Shown here one piece after another: positions 23,755 to 29,280 of a stretch of 35,463 nucleotides of DNA. Positions within the stretch are counted from its first letter, which is position 1; every line of letters starts with the position of its first letter. Under the pieces are notes generated by a model. It saw nothing but the letters and a program-made list of their open reading frames with translations, was not told the DNA's origin and did no database searches. The DNA comes from Hyphomicrobium sp. (GTDB lineage Bacteria; Pseudomonadota; Alphaproteobacteria; Rhizobiales; Hyphomicrobiaceae): the NCBI GenBank assembly GCA_013141015.1, contig JABFRT010000048.1, positions 1 to 35,463 on the forward strand, written 5' to 3'. The translations under genes and the position numbers were made by a program.

Positions 23755-24285
23755 GTGAAGTCTATCGAAAAGCTGATCCGCACGATTCCGGACTACCCCA
23801 AGCCCGGCATCATGTTCCGCGACATCACCACGCTATTGTCGGACGCCAAGGGGTTCAAGAAGGCGATCAAGGCGATGGCCGAGCGGTTTGAGGACCAGAA
23901 AATCAGCGCGGTTGCAGGTATTGAGGCGCGCGGCTTCATTCTGGGCGGGGCTATTGCCGACCGTTTGGAGTGCGGGTTCATCCCGATCCGCAAGAAGGGC
24001 AAACTGCCCTGGAAGACGATTGGCCAGGAATATGCGCTCGAATACGGCGTTGACGTGATCGAGATGCACGAAGATGCGGTAGCCAAGGACCAGCGGATTT
24101 TGATCGTCGACGATCTGATCGCGACGGGGGGCACGGCCGAAGCCGCGGTCAAGCTGATCCGGCGGTCGGGCGGCAAGGTGGCAGGGGCGACATTTATCAT
24201 CGATCTGCCGGAGCTGGGCGGCGCCAAGAAGCTCTCTGACCTCGGTGTCGATAGCCACGCGCTGGTCGCGTTTGAGGGCCATTGA
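23755..24285 (+). CDS. apt: Adenine phosphoribosyltransferase
   Basis: It makes AMP from adenine and PRPP in the cytoplasm, here the natural outlet for adenine released by MtnP. It is 176 aa and full length. The N-terminal DYPKPGIMFRDITTLL block and the flexible loop IRKKGKLPW are family marks. The PRPP-binding site is ILIVDDLIATGGTAEAAVKL. The start is GTG 23755 behind the strong SD GGAGGGAG; the nearby ATG at 23750 is out of frame and stops at once. The next gene begins 1 base after its stop, so it is co-transcribed with the zinc-ribbon gene and probably with mtnA and the aldolase. Confidence 0.97.
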   Translation: MKSIEKLIRTIPDYPKPGIMFRDITTLLSDAKGFKKAIKAMAERFEDQKISAVAGIEARGFILGGAIADRLECGFIPIRKKGKLPWKTIGQEYALEYGVDVIEMHEDAVAKDQRILIVDDLIATGGTAEAAVKLIRRSGGKVAGATFIIDLPELGGAKKLSDLGVDSHALVAFEGH

Positions 24286-24286
24286 A

Positions 24287-24508
24287 ATGGGCAGCCCCTT
24301 GCCAGCCGAGCGGATGGGAGCGGCGCTCGCCAGTATTACCGCTTGGCGGCTTGATCCCGATGCGCCTGTTGCATGTCCGGTCTGCGGGGCGAAGGGCCTC
24401 GCGATTGCCGATCAATCGGCACGGCCATACGCGGAGTGGTATGCTTTGAGCTGTACGTCCTGCGGTCTCGAATACACCGTCCACATTCCGCTGGCGCCGC
24501 CTACATAA
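24287..24508 (+). CDS. Small zinc-ribbon protein, 73 aa
   Basis: This short cytoplasmic protein has two CxxC knuckles, CPVCGAKG at about residues 30-37 and CTSCGLEYT near 56-64, which should bind one zinc in a rubredoxin-like ribbon. The N-terminal helix is [25 protein letters not shown] 24287 begins 1 base after the apt stop, a tightly coupled arrangement. An open frame starting inside apt is not needed. The function is unknown. It could be a structural or nucleic-acid-binding ribbon, or an accessory to one of the salvage enzymes. Finding it in other apt-mtnA operons would support the latter. Confidence 0.75.
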
Positions 24509-26393: not shown

Positions 26394-27695
26394 ATGAACT
26401 TGCATGAGTTCTTTGCGAAGTTAAACGAATTTCCTGGGGACGTACTCTGGGGTGCCGTAGCAACCGCTGCAAGTTTGATTGGTGCAACGTTCTTAGGTGG
26501 CTGGGGCCTCAAGTCTGCAATTTCTGGCACGGCCCATCGCGACGCGAAAGCCGAAGCTGACCTAGCGAGATTGCGTGCCAATACAGCAGAGACCGATCTT
26601 GAAAAGTTGAAACTCTCACAGGCGCGGGCCGTTGAGCGCGTGCAGGATCTCGCGATCGAGAACAGCAAACTTCTGTCGTTGGTCAACACGCGGCAGGCTG
26701 GTGGCGCAGTAGAGGCGCAGGAAGCCGCAATTGTTGCGGATCTTAGGACAAGAGTTTCCAAGTTTGACGCTTTGAAAGATGCCTTGTTTGGTGCGGAAGA
26801 TGATTTATGGAGGATGAAAGCGCCTGCTCCGCCTGAAAAATTCGAATCCAGAATGCGCGAGAGCCGCACGCGGATTGTGACTATCGCAAATTTGAAAGGC
26901 GGCGTTGGAAAAACAACGACAGCTGCCAACTTGGCGGCTCATTTCTCAATCGCTCGCGGCAAGCGCGTCCTGTTGATCGATTTCGACTATCAGGGTTCGT
27001 TGACGCGGATGATGACCTTGGGAGTAAAGATACCGCTTGGCAGCAGTATTCTTGCTGATGCGTTGCTCGGGGGTGAGGTTGACGGGAAATGGACTGCCCA
27101 GGTCTCGCGAGAGCTTGGCGCGAGTTTGCCTGGAATGCGCCTGATCACGTGCGGACCAACTTTCGATTCGTTTGAAAACCGCATTCTGATGCGCTGGTTG
27201 CTCGGTGAGACAAGCGATGACGTACGGTATCGGTTGGCAAAGCTGTTACTCAGCCAGTCTGTACAGGATGAGTTTGACCTCGTCATTATCGACGCGCCAC
27301 CAAGATTAAGTGTGGGCACAGTCAATGCCCTTTGCGCGTCACATGCTATTCTGGTCCCGACTGTTCCAGACCGGCTATCGGTCGATGCCGTCGGACGCTT
27401 TTTGCAGCGCGCAAATGCCTTTCGGGAGTTAAACTCTTCGTTGCTTAAGGTCGGCATCGTCGCATGCTTGACTGAAACGACGATCCTAAAGCCTCACGAA
27501 GCCGAGGCGATGGACTTGGCGAGGACCAGCCTCGACCTCTGGCACGGCCAAGGGAAGGTGATGGAGACGAGCGTTCGCCACTTCACATCATTGGGTAGGG
27601 CAGCCGGGCGAGAAATTGGGTATTTGCAGGATAGGACGGTTCGGGAATTGTTTGATAAACTAGGCGCAGAGGTGGCTCAGCAATGGCAAATGTAA
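26394..27695 (+). CDS. Membrane-anchored coiled-coil ParA-type ATPase
   Basis: This 433-aa protein has three parts. Residues 17-37 form one transmembrane helix (VLWGAVATAASLIGATFLGGWG). Residues 50-135 are a long charged heptad-like helix (DAKAEADLARLRANTAETDL and onward), probably a coiled coil. From about residue 160 comes a complete ParA/MinD-type domain: deviant Walker A NLKGGVGKTTTAAN, switch I LIDFDYQGSLTR, and Walker B DLVIIDAPP. The usual D-x-D-x-Q signature reads DFDYQGS. No ParB partner or parS-like palindrome is visible. The N-terminal anchor and coiled coil are unusual for chromosome-segregation ParA. It starts a three-gene unit with two small proteins, and the block is less GC-rich than its surroundings. 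Function unknown. Confidence 0.8.
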   Translation: MNLHEFFAKLNEFPGDVLWGAVATAASLIGATFLGGWGLKSAISGTAHRDAKAEADLARLRANTAETDLEKLKLSQARAVERVQDLAIENSKLLSLVNTRQAGGAVEAQEAAIVADLRTRVSKFDALKDALFGAEDDLWRMKAPAPPEKFESRMRESRTRIVTIANLKGGVGKTTTAANLAAHFSIARGKRVLLIDFDYQGSLTRMMTLGVKIPLGSSILADALLGGEVDGKWTAQVSRELGASLPGMRLITCGPTFDSFENRILMRWLLGETSDDVRYRLAKLLLSQSVQDEFDLVIIDAPPRLSVGTVNALCASHAILVPTVPDRLSVDAVGRFLQRANAFRELNSSLLKVGIVACLTETTILKPHEAEAMDLARTSLDLWHGQGKVMETSVRHFTSLGRAAGREIGYLQDRTVRELFDKLGAEVAQQWQM

Positions 27696-27898
27696 AAGTC
27701 GCGGCTATTCGCAAAACCTTAGATGCGTTCGCCGAACTCTATGATCACGCAGGTGCGTGCAACAACGCTGTCGCATTGCGCAAATTGAGTGTTGCTCTCT
27801 GCAAGGCAGACAAACGAACAGTGGACGAACTTGTCAACATCCTGTCCACAGGTGGTCAACCGCCGTCCGTACCTCCTATTGTTTCAACTGGACATTGA
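27683..27898 (+). CDS. Small helical partner protein of the ParA-type ATPase, 71 aa
   Basis: Its start lies inside the 3' end of the ATPase gene (13-base overlap), so translation is coupled. The sequence IRKTLDAFAELYDHAGACNN then ALRKLSVALCKADKRTVDELV predicts two or three helices. The same pattern recurs in the N-terminal half of the next gene's product (LRELLHDIQSSISAAGAVVQ, ALGQLAEAFKHSDEKSVDDI), so the two are paralogues or share a domain. It has two cysteines and a Pro-rich tail. It could be a regulator or effector of the ATPase. No known family was recognised. Confidence 0.7.
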   Translation: MANVKVAAIRKTLDAFAELYDHAGACNNAVALRKLSVALCKADKRTVDELVNILSTGGQPPSVPPIVSTGH

Positions 27899-27944
27899 TT
27901 CGCCTGGAATTTGGCATCGATGTTAGGGGCAAGGAGGACAGGCC

Positions 27945-28382
27945 ATGCGTGGACATAGTTTGCGCGAACTACTGCATGACATCCAGTCATCGATCTCCGC
28001 CGCTGGTGCTGTCGTTCAGGCAAAAGCGCTTGGCCAACTGGCCGAAGCGTTCAAGCACAGCGACGAAAAGAGTGTTGATGATATATCAGCAGACATTGCA
28101 TCGGCAATTGCAGACGCTAATGCCCCGGCCTGGGAAAAGCATGCAAAGGCACTAAAAGCCTCTGCATTGGATGAGCGGCTTTTTCTTCAAGCAATTGCGG
28201 CTATCCAAAATGACAAAGGTCTAAAGAAGCCGCAGATTGTGGCCATCGCTAAGGATTATGGCGTTCGCGTCGAGGCGAAGGCGTCGGTCGATAGATTGGT
28301 CGAACAGATCAAAAGCATCTTCTACGAACAGCTTTACCAGCGTGATGCCGACGCGATGGCCCAAAGAGCCACACCCTGGTGA
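27945..28382 (+). CDS. Two-part helical protein of the ParA-type operon, 145 aa
   Basis: It follows the 71-aa gene by 46 bases; ATG 27945 has GGAGG about 9 bases upstream (AAGGAGGACAGGCC). The N-terminal half (residues 1-55) resembles the 71-aa protein. The C-terminal half reads LQAIAAIQNDKGLKKPQIVA and continues IAKDYGVRVEAKASVDRLVEQI, a helix-loop-helix pattern that recalls SAP or Rho-N-like nucleic-acid-binding modules; this is only a guess by eye. There is no signal or membrane helix. It ends the unit: the next genes are on the opposite strand and decayed. Its role is unknown, but the three genes look like one system. Confidence 0.7.
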   Translation: MRGHSLRELLHDIQSSISAAGAVVQAKALGQLAEAFKHSDEKSVDDISADIASAIADANAPAWEKHAKALKASALDERLFLQAIAAIQNDKGLKKPQIVAIAKDYGVRVEAKASVDRLVEQIKSIFYEQLYQRDADAMAQRATPW

Positions 28383-28386
28383 AGGG

Positions 28387-28735
28387 TTACCACATATCCT
28401 CGGGGCGTTCGTTGGCTTTGACGTGCAGTCTCCACGCCTGATCGCGGACGCCGGCGACGTGGGGGCAACGTTTGAGATGAGCCACCGCCACGGGCGAAGG
28501 CTGATAAAAATAGCGCATATTCTCGTCGTCCGGCACGTCCGCGAGCAGACCACGCGAGATCAGACGCTGCAGCATTTCGTTGCCGAGCGTTTGCTGCAAT
28601 CCGTCGTTCAGTTGGGTAAGGGACCCTTTGTAGCGGCGCGCTGCGATGTCACAAATTACAAGCGCGCGGCATTCATCCGCTGAGACACGTTCGTGGCCGT
28701 CGCTGTGGTGCAGGGGGCGTGCGGCGGGCTTGTCT
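28387..28735 (-). pseudogene. Open frame without a proper start, downstream of the LuxR-like remnant
   Basis: One frame is open from about 28735 (just after a TAA) to the stop at 28387. It reads like a real protein: SADECRALVICDIAARRYKG, LGNEMLQRLISRGLLADVPD, then PVAVAHLKRCPHVAGVRDQA and ANERPEDMW. It has no ATG or GTG; a TTG at 28599 would miss the first third. It overlaps the C-terminal part of the LuxR-like frame. It may be a gene that lost its start, or a C-terminal part joined to the upstream remnant by a frameshift. Family unknown. Confidence 0.45.
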
Positions 28736-29280
28736 TAAGCCGGAGCGTTGCCTCGCCCGGCAGCATAATGTTCTGCGTGATGGCAACGCTATCGAGTTCC
28801 AGAAACCGCAGCCACATGGCGTACGTTTTGACCGACAAAATCGATGTGCGCGCTGGGTCGACGGAGCGCTTTTCGCGAAACGTGATGTCGAACACGTCGC
28901 AATGGCCGTTGGGTCCATAAAACGGCATGGCATAGCCGCCGGTGCAGCCAATCTCGCGGCAGATGCCGAGTGTATCGCGCTCTGCTTTCGACACGCACTG
29001 CCGTTCCATCTCGTTCCAGGTGAATGCCGCCGCCCGATTGCCGACCGGGCGAACCATCGGGTCATGTTCGGCGAGGTTCTGCTCAAAGTAGGTCTCAAGT
29101 GCGCCTTCGGGCACGGACAGGTAAGCGTACTTCGACAATGGTCTTGTAGGATTGCCGGATGAAGACAACGTTCTGAAAACCTTCGCGCTCAACGTCGTCT
29201 CGATAGATACTAAACAGCTGTTCGCTGCTGGTGCAGGCGCTGATTTCTGCCAGATATTCGTCTACCGAACGCGGGTGCAT
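28656..29280 (-). pseudogene. Frameshifted LuxR-type autoinducer-binding domain gene lacking the HTH
   Basis: The N-terminal part (29280 to about 29130) reads MHPRSVDEYLAEISACTSSE then DDVEREGFQNVVFIRQSYKT. After a one-base shift near 29125-29140 the next frame continues YAYLSVPEGALETYFEQNLA, EHDPMVRPVGNRAAAFTW, GGYAMPFYGPNGHCDVFDIT and LSVKTYAMWLRFLELDS. This joins into the autoinducer-binding fold of LuxR-type quorum regulators. No LuxR helix-turn-helix (L-T-x-R-E...) follows in any frame. The gene therefore seems broken both by a frameshift and by loss of its DNA-binding end. It lies in the same accessory stretch as the ParA-type operon, on the other strand. A sequencing error could explain the frameshift but not the missing HTH. 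Confidence 0.6.

What the first reader, a model, noticed from the sequence alone, without database searches (positions are those of the whole stretch)
26394..28382. Candidate new system: TM-anchored coiled-coil ParA ATPase with two related small helical proteins
A complete ParA/MinD-like ATPase is fused to one membrane helix and a long coiled coil, without ParB or parS. It is coupled by a 13-base overlap to a 71-aa protein, then a 145-aa protein whose first half is similar to it and whose second half recalls SAP/Rho-N-like modules. The block is less GC-rich and sits between core genes next to decayed genes, as mobile defence or partition modules often do. I know no named system with this layout.
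Basis: partly seen in the sequence, partly recalled or inferred. Interest (0 to 1): 0.8.

Follow-up and report, generated by a model that had tools for sequence, protein, structure and literature searches.

The report
Membrane-anchored ParA ATPase with adaptor partners
A bacterial chromosome carries a three-gene unit, a ParA-type ATPase fixed in the membrane plus two related small helical proteins, and the ATPase and its partner recur together in many related bacteria, which suggests an undescribed kind of membrane-based molecular switch whose job is still unknown.

Summary
Window 26394-28382 encodes a 433-aa ParA/MinD-type ATPase with one N-terminal membrane helix and a helical stalk, then a 71-aa and a 145-aa protein with related N-terminal domains. 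It is a recurrent module: 34 of 102 genomes of the family carry the ATPase. Of 28 ATPase loci read, 27 have a partner of this protein family directly behind; the 28th is cut by a contig end. Eight were found by the ATPase alone; all eight have it. Elsewhere the two small proteins occur fused as one partner, so they probably act together. Partners beside an ATPase end in a sub-lineage-specific tail; six partners of one genus without an adjacent ATPase have lost it. Best reading: a permanently membrane-anchored A/D ATPase switch with a dedicated adaptor that docks through its C-terminal tail and carries a fast-evolving N-terminal domain. Cargo and role are unknown. SAP/Rho-N homology is not supported. 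Defence is neither shown nor excluded: neighbours are mostly housekeeping genes, and plasmid, phage and viral searches found no copy. No library or paper searched names the layout.

The parts
26394..27695 (+). membrane-anchored ParA/MinD-type ATPase, 433 aa
   Evidence: alignment of 26 family members A5
26442..26498 (+). N-terminal transmembrane helix (residues about 17-35), ATPase predicted cytosolic
   Evidence: Kyte-Doolittle 1.67; of 33 family members with a hydrophobic helix (29 strong, 4 weak; window included) 32 have more K/R after it than before
26526..26816 (+). long helical, coiled-coil-like stalk (residues about 45-141)
   Evidence: sequence, and low-confidence AF2 helices 15-101 and 109-141 (pLDDT 40); length varies widely in relatives, very short in some
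26895..26918 (+). deviant Walker A motif KGGVGKTT (residues 168-175)
27683..27898 (+). 71-aa small helical protein, equivalent of the first N-repeat of fused partners
27945..28382 (+). 145-aa partner (adaptor) protein
27957..28118 (+). three-helix N-domain of the partner, the least conserved part in three of four clades
   Evidence: AF2 helices 6-19, 22-37, 44-58, pLDDT about 61-73; identities
28122..28367 (+). helical C-domain of the partner
   Evidence: AF2 helices 62-72, 77-89, 95-104, 115-141, pLDDT about 81-90 (single sequence)
28350..28379 (+). C-terminal tail (..QRATPW), proposed ATPase-docking peptide
   Evidence: tail kept in ATPase-linked partners, absent in six partners without adjacent ATPase

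Best explanation
The block is one member of an undescribed two-component family: a ParA/MinD-type (A/D) ATPase fixed in the inner membrane by an N-terminal helix, with the ATPase domain held in the cytoplasm on a helical stalk, plus a dedicated partner. Proposed cycle (inferred): ATP makes the anchored ATPase dimerise; the dimer exposes a site that captures the partner's C-terminal tail; docking promotes hydrolysis and release; the partner's fast-evolving N-terminal helical repeats hold a cargo or ligand, so the module is an ATP-timed membrane tether or positioning switch. In the window lineage the partner is split into two proteins (71 aa + 145 aa) that likely work as one. Shown here: the architecture, the gene linkage, the split/fused equivalence, the tail and its loss in six partners without adjacent ATPase. 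Inferred: topology, dimerisation, tail docking, cargo, and any biological role.
For: Linkage in both directions: 19 of 29 loci fetched with the partner profile alone carry the ATPase; 27 of 28 loci fetched with the ATPase profile carry the partner, including 8 of 8 not found by the partner search. Ordinary ParA controls have no such partner: 0 of 5 cellular and plasmid loci, no hit at E 0.05 among the ORFs of 80 viral ParA loci. Walker A lysines, Walker A' (DxDxQG) and Walker B (DxPPR) are invariant in 26 of 26. Positive-inside for a cytosolic ATPase in 32 of 33. Small protein vs first N-repeat of 8 fused partners: Prob 97.3, E 2.1e-11; trio L085 nests with fused duos L065/L198/L199 at 100/100. 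Small and partner genes look under purifying selection in L048/L049 (pN 0.18 and 0.16, pS 0.69 and 0.76). In the two-repeat clade (15 pairs) median identity is ATPase 47, last ten columns 50, C-domain 41, N part 19%. Six partners of one genus without adjacent ATPase end without the tail. PMC10241942 (passages): A/D ATPases bind nucleoid or membrane and meet partners through a basic disordered terminus.
Against: No complex was modelled and the ATPase model failed (pLDDT 40). Known partners use the N-terminus (PMC10241942, passages); here a C-terminus is proposed. The tail differs between sub-lineages, is not basic in most trio partners (net -2 to +1 in 9 of 10), and in two of four clades its median identity (30%) is below that of the C-domain. 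One partner without ATPase (L030) keeps the tail, and the six tail-less ones look orthologous, so probably one event; one of their six genomes (G820) has a partial ATPase elsewhere. Patchy occurrence is unusual for a positioning system. A permanently anchored ATPase cannot cycle on and off a matrix as MinD does.
Confidence: 0.55

Rival explanations
1. Anti-phage or other conflict module: the anchored ATPase with its variable N-terminal recognition domain senses an invader and acts at the membrane.
For: Patchy: 34 of 102 genomes of the family at E 1e-40; 2 of 190 in a class sample and 1 of 200 in a phylum sample at 1e-55, both counts including the own genome. Partner N part is the least conserved in three of four clades. 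Relatives in one genus at different sites (L063/L064); the recR region holds different lineages, and two modules side by side in L073. Single neighbours match PADLOC models PD-T7-1 (5.5e-145), PD-T7-5 (5.9e-44), BilC, PDC-M53A and Csa3; which ORFs these are was not resolved. PMC13092281 (passages): only 17% of known E. coli defence genes lie in defence islands.
Against: No effector domain in the window proteins. Neighbours mostly housekeeping, PADLOC models each in one member of 89. No copy in the plasmid, phage or viral searches made.
Confidence: 0.25
2. Relic of a plasmid partition locus (ParA plus an unusual centromere-binding protein) stranded in the chromosome.
For: ATPase family closest in PDB sequence searches to ParA/Soj-type proteins; many plasmid ParAs match the ATPase domain at up to about 33% identity in the rows listed.
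Against: No ParB or HTH family in 27 partners, whereas ParB_N is found behind the plasmid ParAs L015 and, just below cut-off, L016. No parS, no direct repeats in the block. The 34 family rows fall apart from four ordinary ParAs, but with support 82/91, below the tool's bar, and long outgroup branches. No plasmid copy found.
Confidence: 0.1
3. Membrane-nucleoid tether: the partner C-domain binds DNA non-specifically and the ATPase holds chromosomal DNA at the membrane.
For: C-domain net charge is zero or positive in 24 of 27 partners; its helix-loop-helix resembles SAP/Rho_N by eye, and 1 of 27 partners hits Pfam Fan1_SAP weakly (0.03).
Against: Profile comparison with Rho_N not significant (Prob 2.8); SAP could not be tested because the search found no SAP protein even in the 14 control genomes; no fold match.
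Confidence: 0.1

Closest known systems
ParABS partition systems (ParA/Soj with ParB)
   Same: KGGVGKT deviant Walker A ATPase (Soj 1wcv, 6iub; ParA 8ray) with a cognate partner encoded directly downstream
   Different: membrane helix and stalk; partner has no recognised ParB or HTH domain and no parS was found; DxDYQGS and DxPPR signatures
MinD-MinE and FlhG (membrane A/D ATPases)
   Same: A/D ATPase acting at the inner membrane
   Different: they use a membrane-targeting sequence, amphipathic in MinD (PMC10241942, PMC9178275, passages); here an N-terminal membrane helix and a partner that matches no library family
McdA-McdB and other protein-cargo A/D systems
   Same: ATPase plus dedicated partner, partners very diverse between systems (PMC10241942, passages)
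   Different: McdA and ParC bind the nucleoid, partners contact through the N-terminus (PMC10241942, passages); McdA has SGGQGKT (PMC9178275 table, passage)
Bacterial tyrosine kinases (Wzc/CpsD type)
   Same: membrane-associated P-loop ATPase fold (recalled)
   Different: no C-terminal tyrosine cluster: 0 or 1 Tyr in the last 20 residues in 26 of 26

Membership tests
ParA/MinD (A/D) ATPase superfamily | deviant Walker A with signature lysine, Walker A' and Walker B | tested here: met
   Pfam AAA_31 1.7e-28; motifs conserved in A5
ParABS partition system | ParB or other recognised centromere-binding partner | tested here: not met
   27 partners scanned against Pfam at E 0.1, no ParB or HTH-type centromere-binding family among the 25 families shown
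ParABS partition system | parS or centromere repeats | tested here: not met
   0 parS-like sites in the window with up to 3 mismatches (consensus recalled); no direct repeats in the block
ParABS partition system | ATPase binds DNA non-specifically | not testable with these tools
   needs biochemistry
MinD-type membrane ATPase | C-terminal amphipathic membrane-targeting helix and a MinE partner | tested here: inconclusive
   an N-terminal helix is present; C-terminal amphipathicity not computed; partner matches no library family
SAP/Rho_N domain proteins | significant profile match of the C-domain | tested here: not met
   hhalign to Rho_N domains taken from 30 loci Prob 2.8, p 0.016; narrower segment Prob 8.9, p 0.0037; Pfam best for P0003 Ku_C 0.016, below cut-off; SAP profile not testable
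Bacterial tyrosine kinase | C-terminal tyrosine cluster | tested here: not met
   0-1 Tyr in last 20 residues, 26 of 26
Known anti-phage defence systems in PADLOC 2.0.0 | match of all components to a named system | tested here: not met
   small proteins no match; ATPase matches PDC-M28B only around the P-loop (7.8e-8, residues 149-198); 21 of 26 family members hit the same model, best 2.1e-11

The most novel reading that the evidence does not exclude
A third mode of A/D ATPase: neither nucleoid-bound nor reversibly membrane-bound, but permanently membrane-spanning, with a modular adaptor whose C-terminal tail plugs into the ATPase while its N-terminal repeats diversify rapidly, as in a recognition system. 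It would be an ATP-timed membrane capture device, possibly against invading elements, that changes insertion sites in alphaproteobacterial-type chromosomes (class name recalled, genomes unnamed).
Probability: 0.3. Interest if true: 0.8.

Novelty: new variant of a known kind. Interest (0 to 1): 0.6.

Why it matters
A/D ATPases with no identified partner are called orphans in the field (PMC10241942, passages). Here a whole family comes with its partner, a built-in split/fused comparison and natural partners without an ATPase beside them, so the docking site can be tested directly. A permanently anchored ATPase would also challenge the usual view that these machines work by cycling on and off a matrix.

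Tried and rejected
SAP/Rho-N homology: not supported by profile comparison. Fold search of the partner model: 0 of 69 PDB matches at E 0.001 or better. AF2 of the ATPase gave pLDDT 40, single sequence. The best PDB profile hits of the partner family (8.2e-6 to 4.2e-5) are or look like designed helical proteins and were judged compositional. Partition relic, tyrosine kinase and named defence system: see membership test. Viral contigs: 420 relatives, the best 80 kept and read: no partner hit among their ORFs; a membrane helix was looked for only in the first 59 hits, and none of the five with a long N-terminus had one. The narrow three-row partner profile found only the own genome in 385 of the class. 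Rows dropped: A3 (27 partners) and A5 (26 ATPases) are selections from the loci fetched; the tree (38 rows) left out the broken or partial ATPases of G200, G850 and G785. The 28 ATPase loci are those newly fetched out of 39 places listed (two more, L054 and L068, were held and also have a partner). Of 181 neighbour ORFs (90-700 aa, within 5 kb, picked as longest non-overlapping) I scanned 178. Partner hits without an ATPase nearby and probably chance: L005, L007, L009, L010 and L087-L092.

Full report
The observation. The three ORFs are present as described, on one strand and tightly packed: ATPase 26394-27695, a 71-aa ORF overlapping it by 13 bases (27683-27898), and a 145-aa ORF (27945-28382). 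The ATPase has AAA_31 at 1.7e-28, one N-terminal hydrophobic helix with slightly more K/R on the ATPase side, and a long helical stalk. The small proteins match nothing above cut-off in Pfam, PADLOC or NCBIfam. GC drops to about 54% from about 57-62% on the two sides. The window genome holds one match to the partner and one to the ATPase profile.

Is it more than chance? The strongest evidence is recurrence with linkage. A search of 397 genomes of the order with the 145-aa protein gave 11 genomes at E 0.01 or better, the own one included. Of the 11 places other than the window, 7 carry an ATPase of this family beside the partner and 4 look like chance. A three-row profile found 35 of 103 family genomes at E 0.1. 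Of the 29 loci fetched from that search, 19 carry the ATPase. Of the ten without, two are cut by contig ends (L028, L037), one keeps only an ATPase fragment (L021) and seven have none beside them (L030 and six similar ones in the window's genus). In reverse, an ATPase profile found 34 of 102 family genomes at 1e-40; 27 of 28 loci fetched have the partner and the last is cut. Eight of these (L190, L195-L201) had not been found by the partner search; all eight have a partner. Outside the family, the wider partner profile hit 9 of 398 genomes of a phylum sample (own included); of the other eight, G025 and G1029 carry the ATPase. In a class sample the one other ATPase genome, G512, also has a weak partner match (E 2.4e-6) overlapping the ATPase end. 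Controls without partner: five ordinary ParA loci and 80 viral ParA loci.

Anatomy. Ten loci show the trio (window, L047-L049, L051-L055, L085), most with a 4-base overlap between ATPase and small ORF. Others show a duo with one partner of 106-232 aa. Eight partners of about 210-232 aa contain two N-repeats and a C-domain: their first repeat matches the small proteins (Prob 97.3, E 2.1e-11), and the small proteins match the N-domain of the 145-aa family (Prob 97.2, E 3.4e-11). In the tree, trio and duo intermix; trio L085 groups with fused duos at 100/100. So the two small proteins of the window correspond to one fused partner elsewhere. In the pair L048/L049 both the small and the partner gene show pN well below pS (0.18 and 0.16 against 0.69 and 0.76).

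The tail. Partners beside an ATPase end in tails characteristic of their sub-lineage (for example TPW, GRxAA or GRxAG, RPW, KIAV, GIF). The six genus mates lack it; L030, whose site is shared with the ATPase-bearing L061, keeps it. Median identities (ATPase, N part, C-domain, last ten columns): two-repeat clade 47, 19, 41, 50%; trio clade 48, 25.5, 29, 40; RPW clade 46.5, 37, 34.5, 30; KIAV clade 50, 25, 34.5, 30. I read this as moderate support for tail docking, not proof.

Place in the genome. The trio lies in the mtnB-ychF interval here, beside mtnB in G847 and G850 and beside ychF in G785, four genera in all. In 7 of the 29 other ychF loci read, mtnB and ychF are convergent neighbours less than 1 kb apart and no module was detected. 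Related ATPases within one genus (L063, L064) share no flanking gene at 45% identity or more. The region 3' of recR carries modules in three genomes of two other families of the order (L072, L073, L085), of different tree lineages. Neighbours are mostly housekeeping genes, though single ones match PADLOC models strongly, PD-T7-1 at 5.5e-145 best, and I could not resolve which; 4 of 22 flanking stretches hold a tRNA gene. The module is therefore accessory and changes place over time, with some long-held sites. It looks concentrated in this family: 34 of 102 there, against 2 of 190 in a class sample and 1 of 200 in a phylum sample at a stricter cut-off, own genome included.

Mechanism. From what is described for A/D ATPases (PMC10241942, PMC9178275, PMC12462528: passages read), an ATP-bound dimer offers a site for a partner peptide that stimulates hydrolysis. 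The conserved motifs here make the same switch likely. The membrane helix would replace reversible matrix binding. The rest (docking by the C-terminal tail, cargo on the N-repeats) is inference at the confidence given.

What it is not, as far as tested. No ParB family and no parS, no named defence system, no Tyr cluster, no significant Rho_N relation. Literature searches (listings) and passages in six papers showed no description of this layout; subscription papers are mostly not held, so this is not proof of absence in print.

Noticed in passing
window 28656-29280, minus strand: LuxR-type gene in pieces: autoinducer-binding domain in one frame (Pfam 7.8e-11), its apparent start in another frame, no DNA-binding domain matched; looks decayed.
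   Followed up: partly
window 24245-24505, plus strand: 87-aa ORF with two CxxC pairs, zinc-ribbon-like but below Pfam cut-offs.
   Followed up: no
L072 9765-11524: Between recR and the anchored-ATPase module lies a second ParA-type ATPase without N-terminal extension, with a 159-aa protein of unknown family, perhaps an analogous pair.
   Followed up: partly
L073 2305-5541: Two different anchored-ATPase modules face each other behind recR; the second ATPase is cut by the contig end.
   Followed up: partly
L035, L038, L039, L041, L043, L046: Partners without adjacent ATPase in six genomes of the window's genus; in the two whose flanks I read (G813 in L083, G815 in L046) similar membrane-protein genes lie beside them.
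   Followed up: partly
L048 6983-8247: ATPase of G200 is interrupted by an in-frame stop although both small genes are open.
   Followed up: no
neighbours of the modules (sets A6, A7): Single neighbouring ORFs match PADLOC PD-T7-1, PD-T7-5, BilC, PDC-M53A and Csa3 models; not traced to loci.
   Followed up: no
L017 1-5950: Methylocystis plasmid ParA followed by two unknown proteins, near E2/ThiF/multiubiquitin genes.
   Followed up: no
L052 7023-7106: Array of 14-base repeats between mtnB and the ATPase gene, not seen in the window.
   Followed up: no
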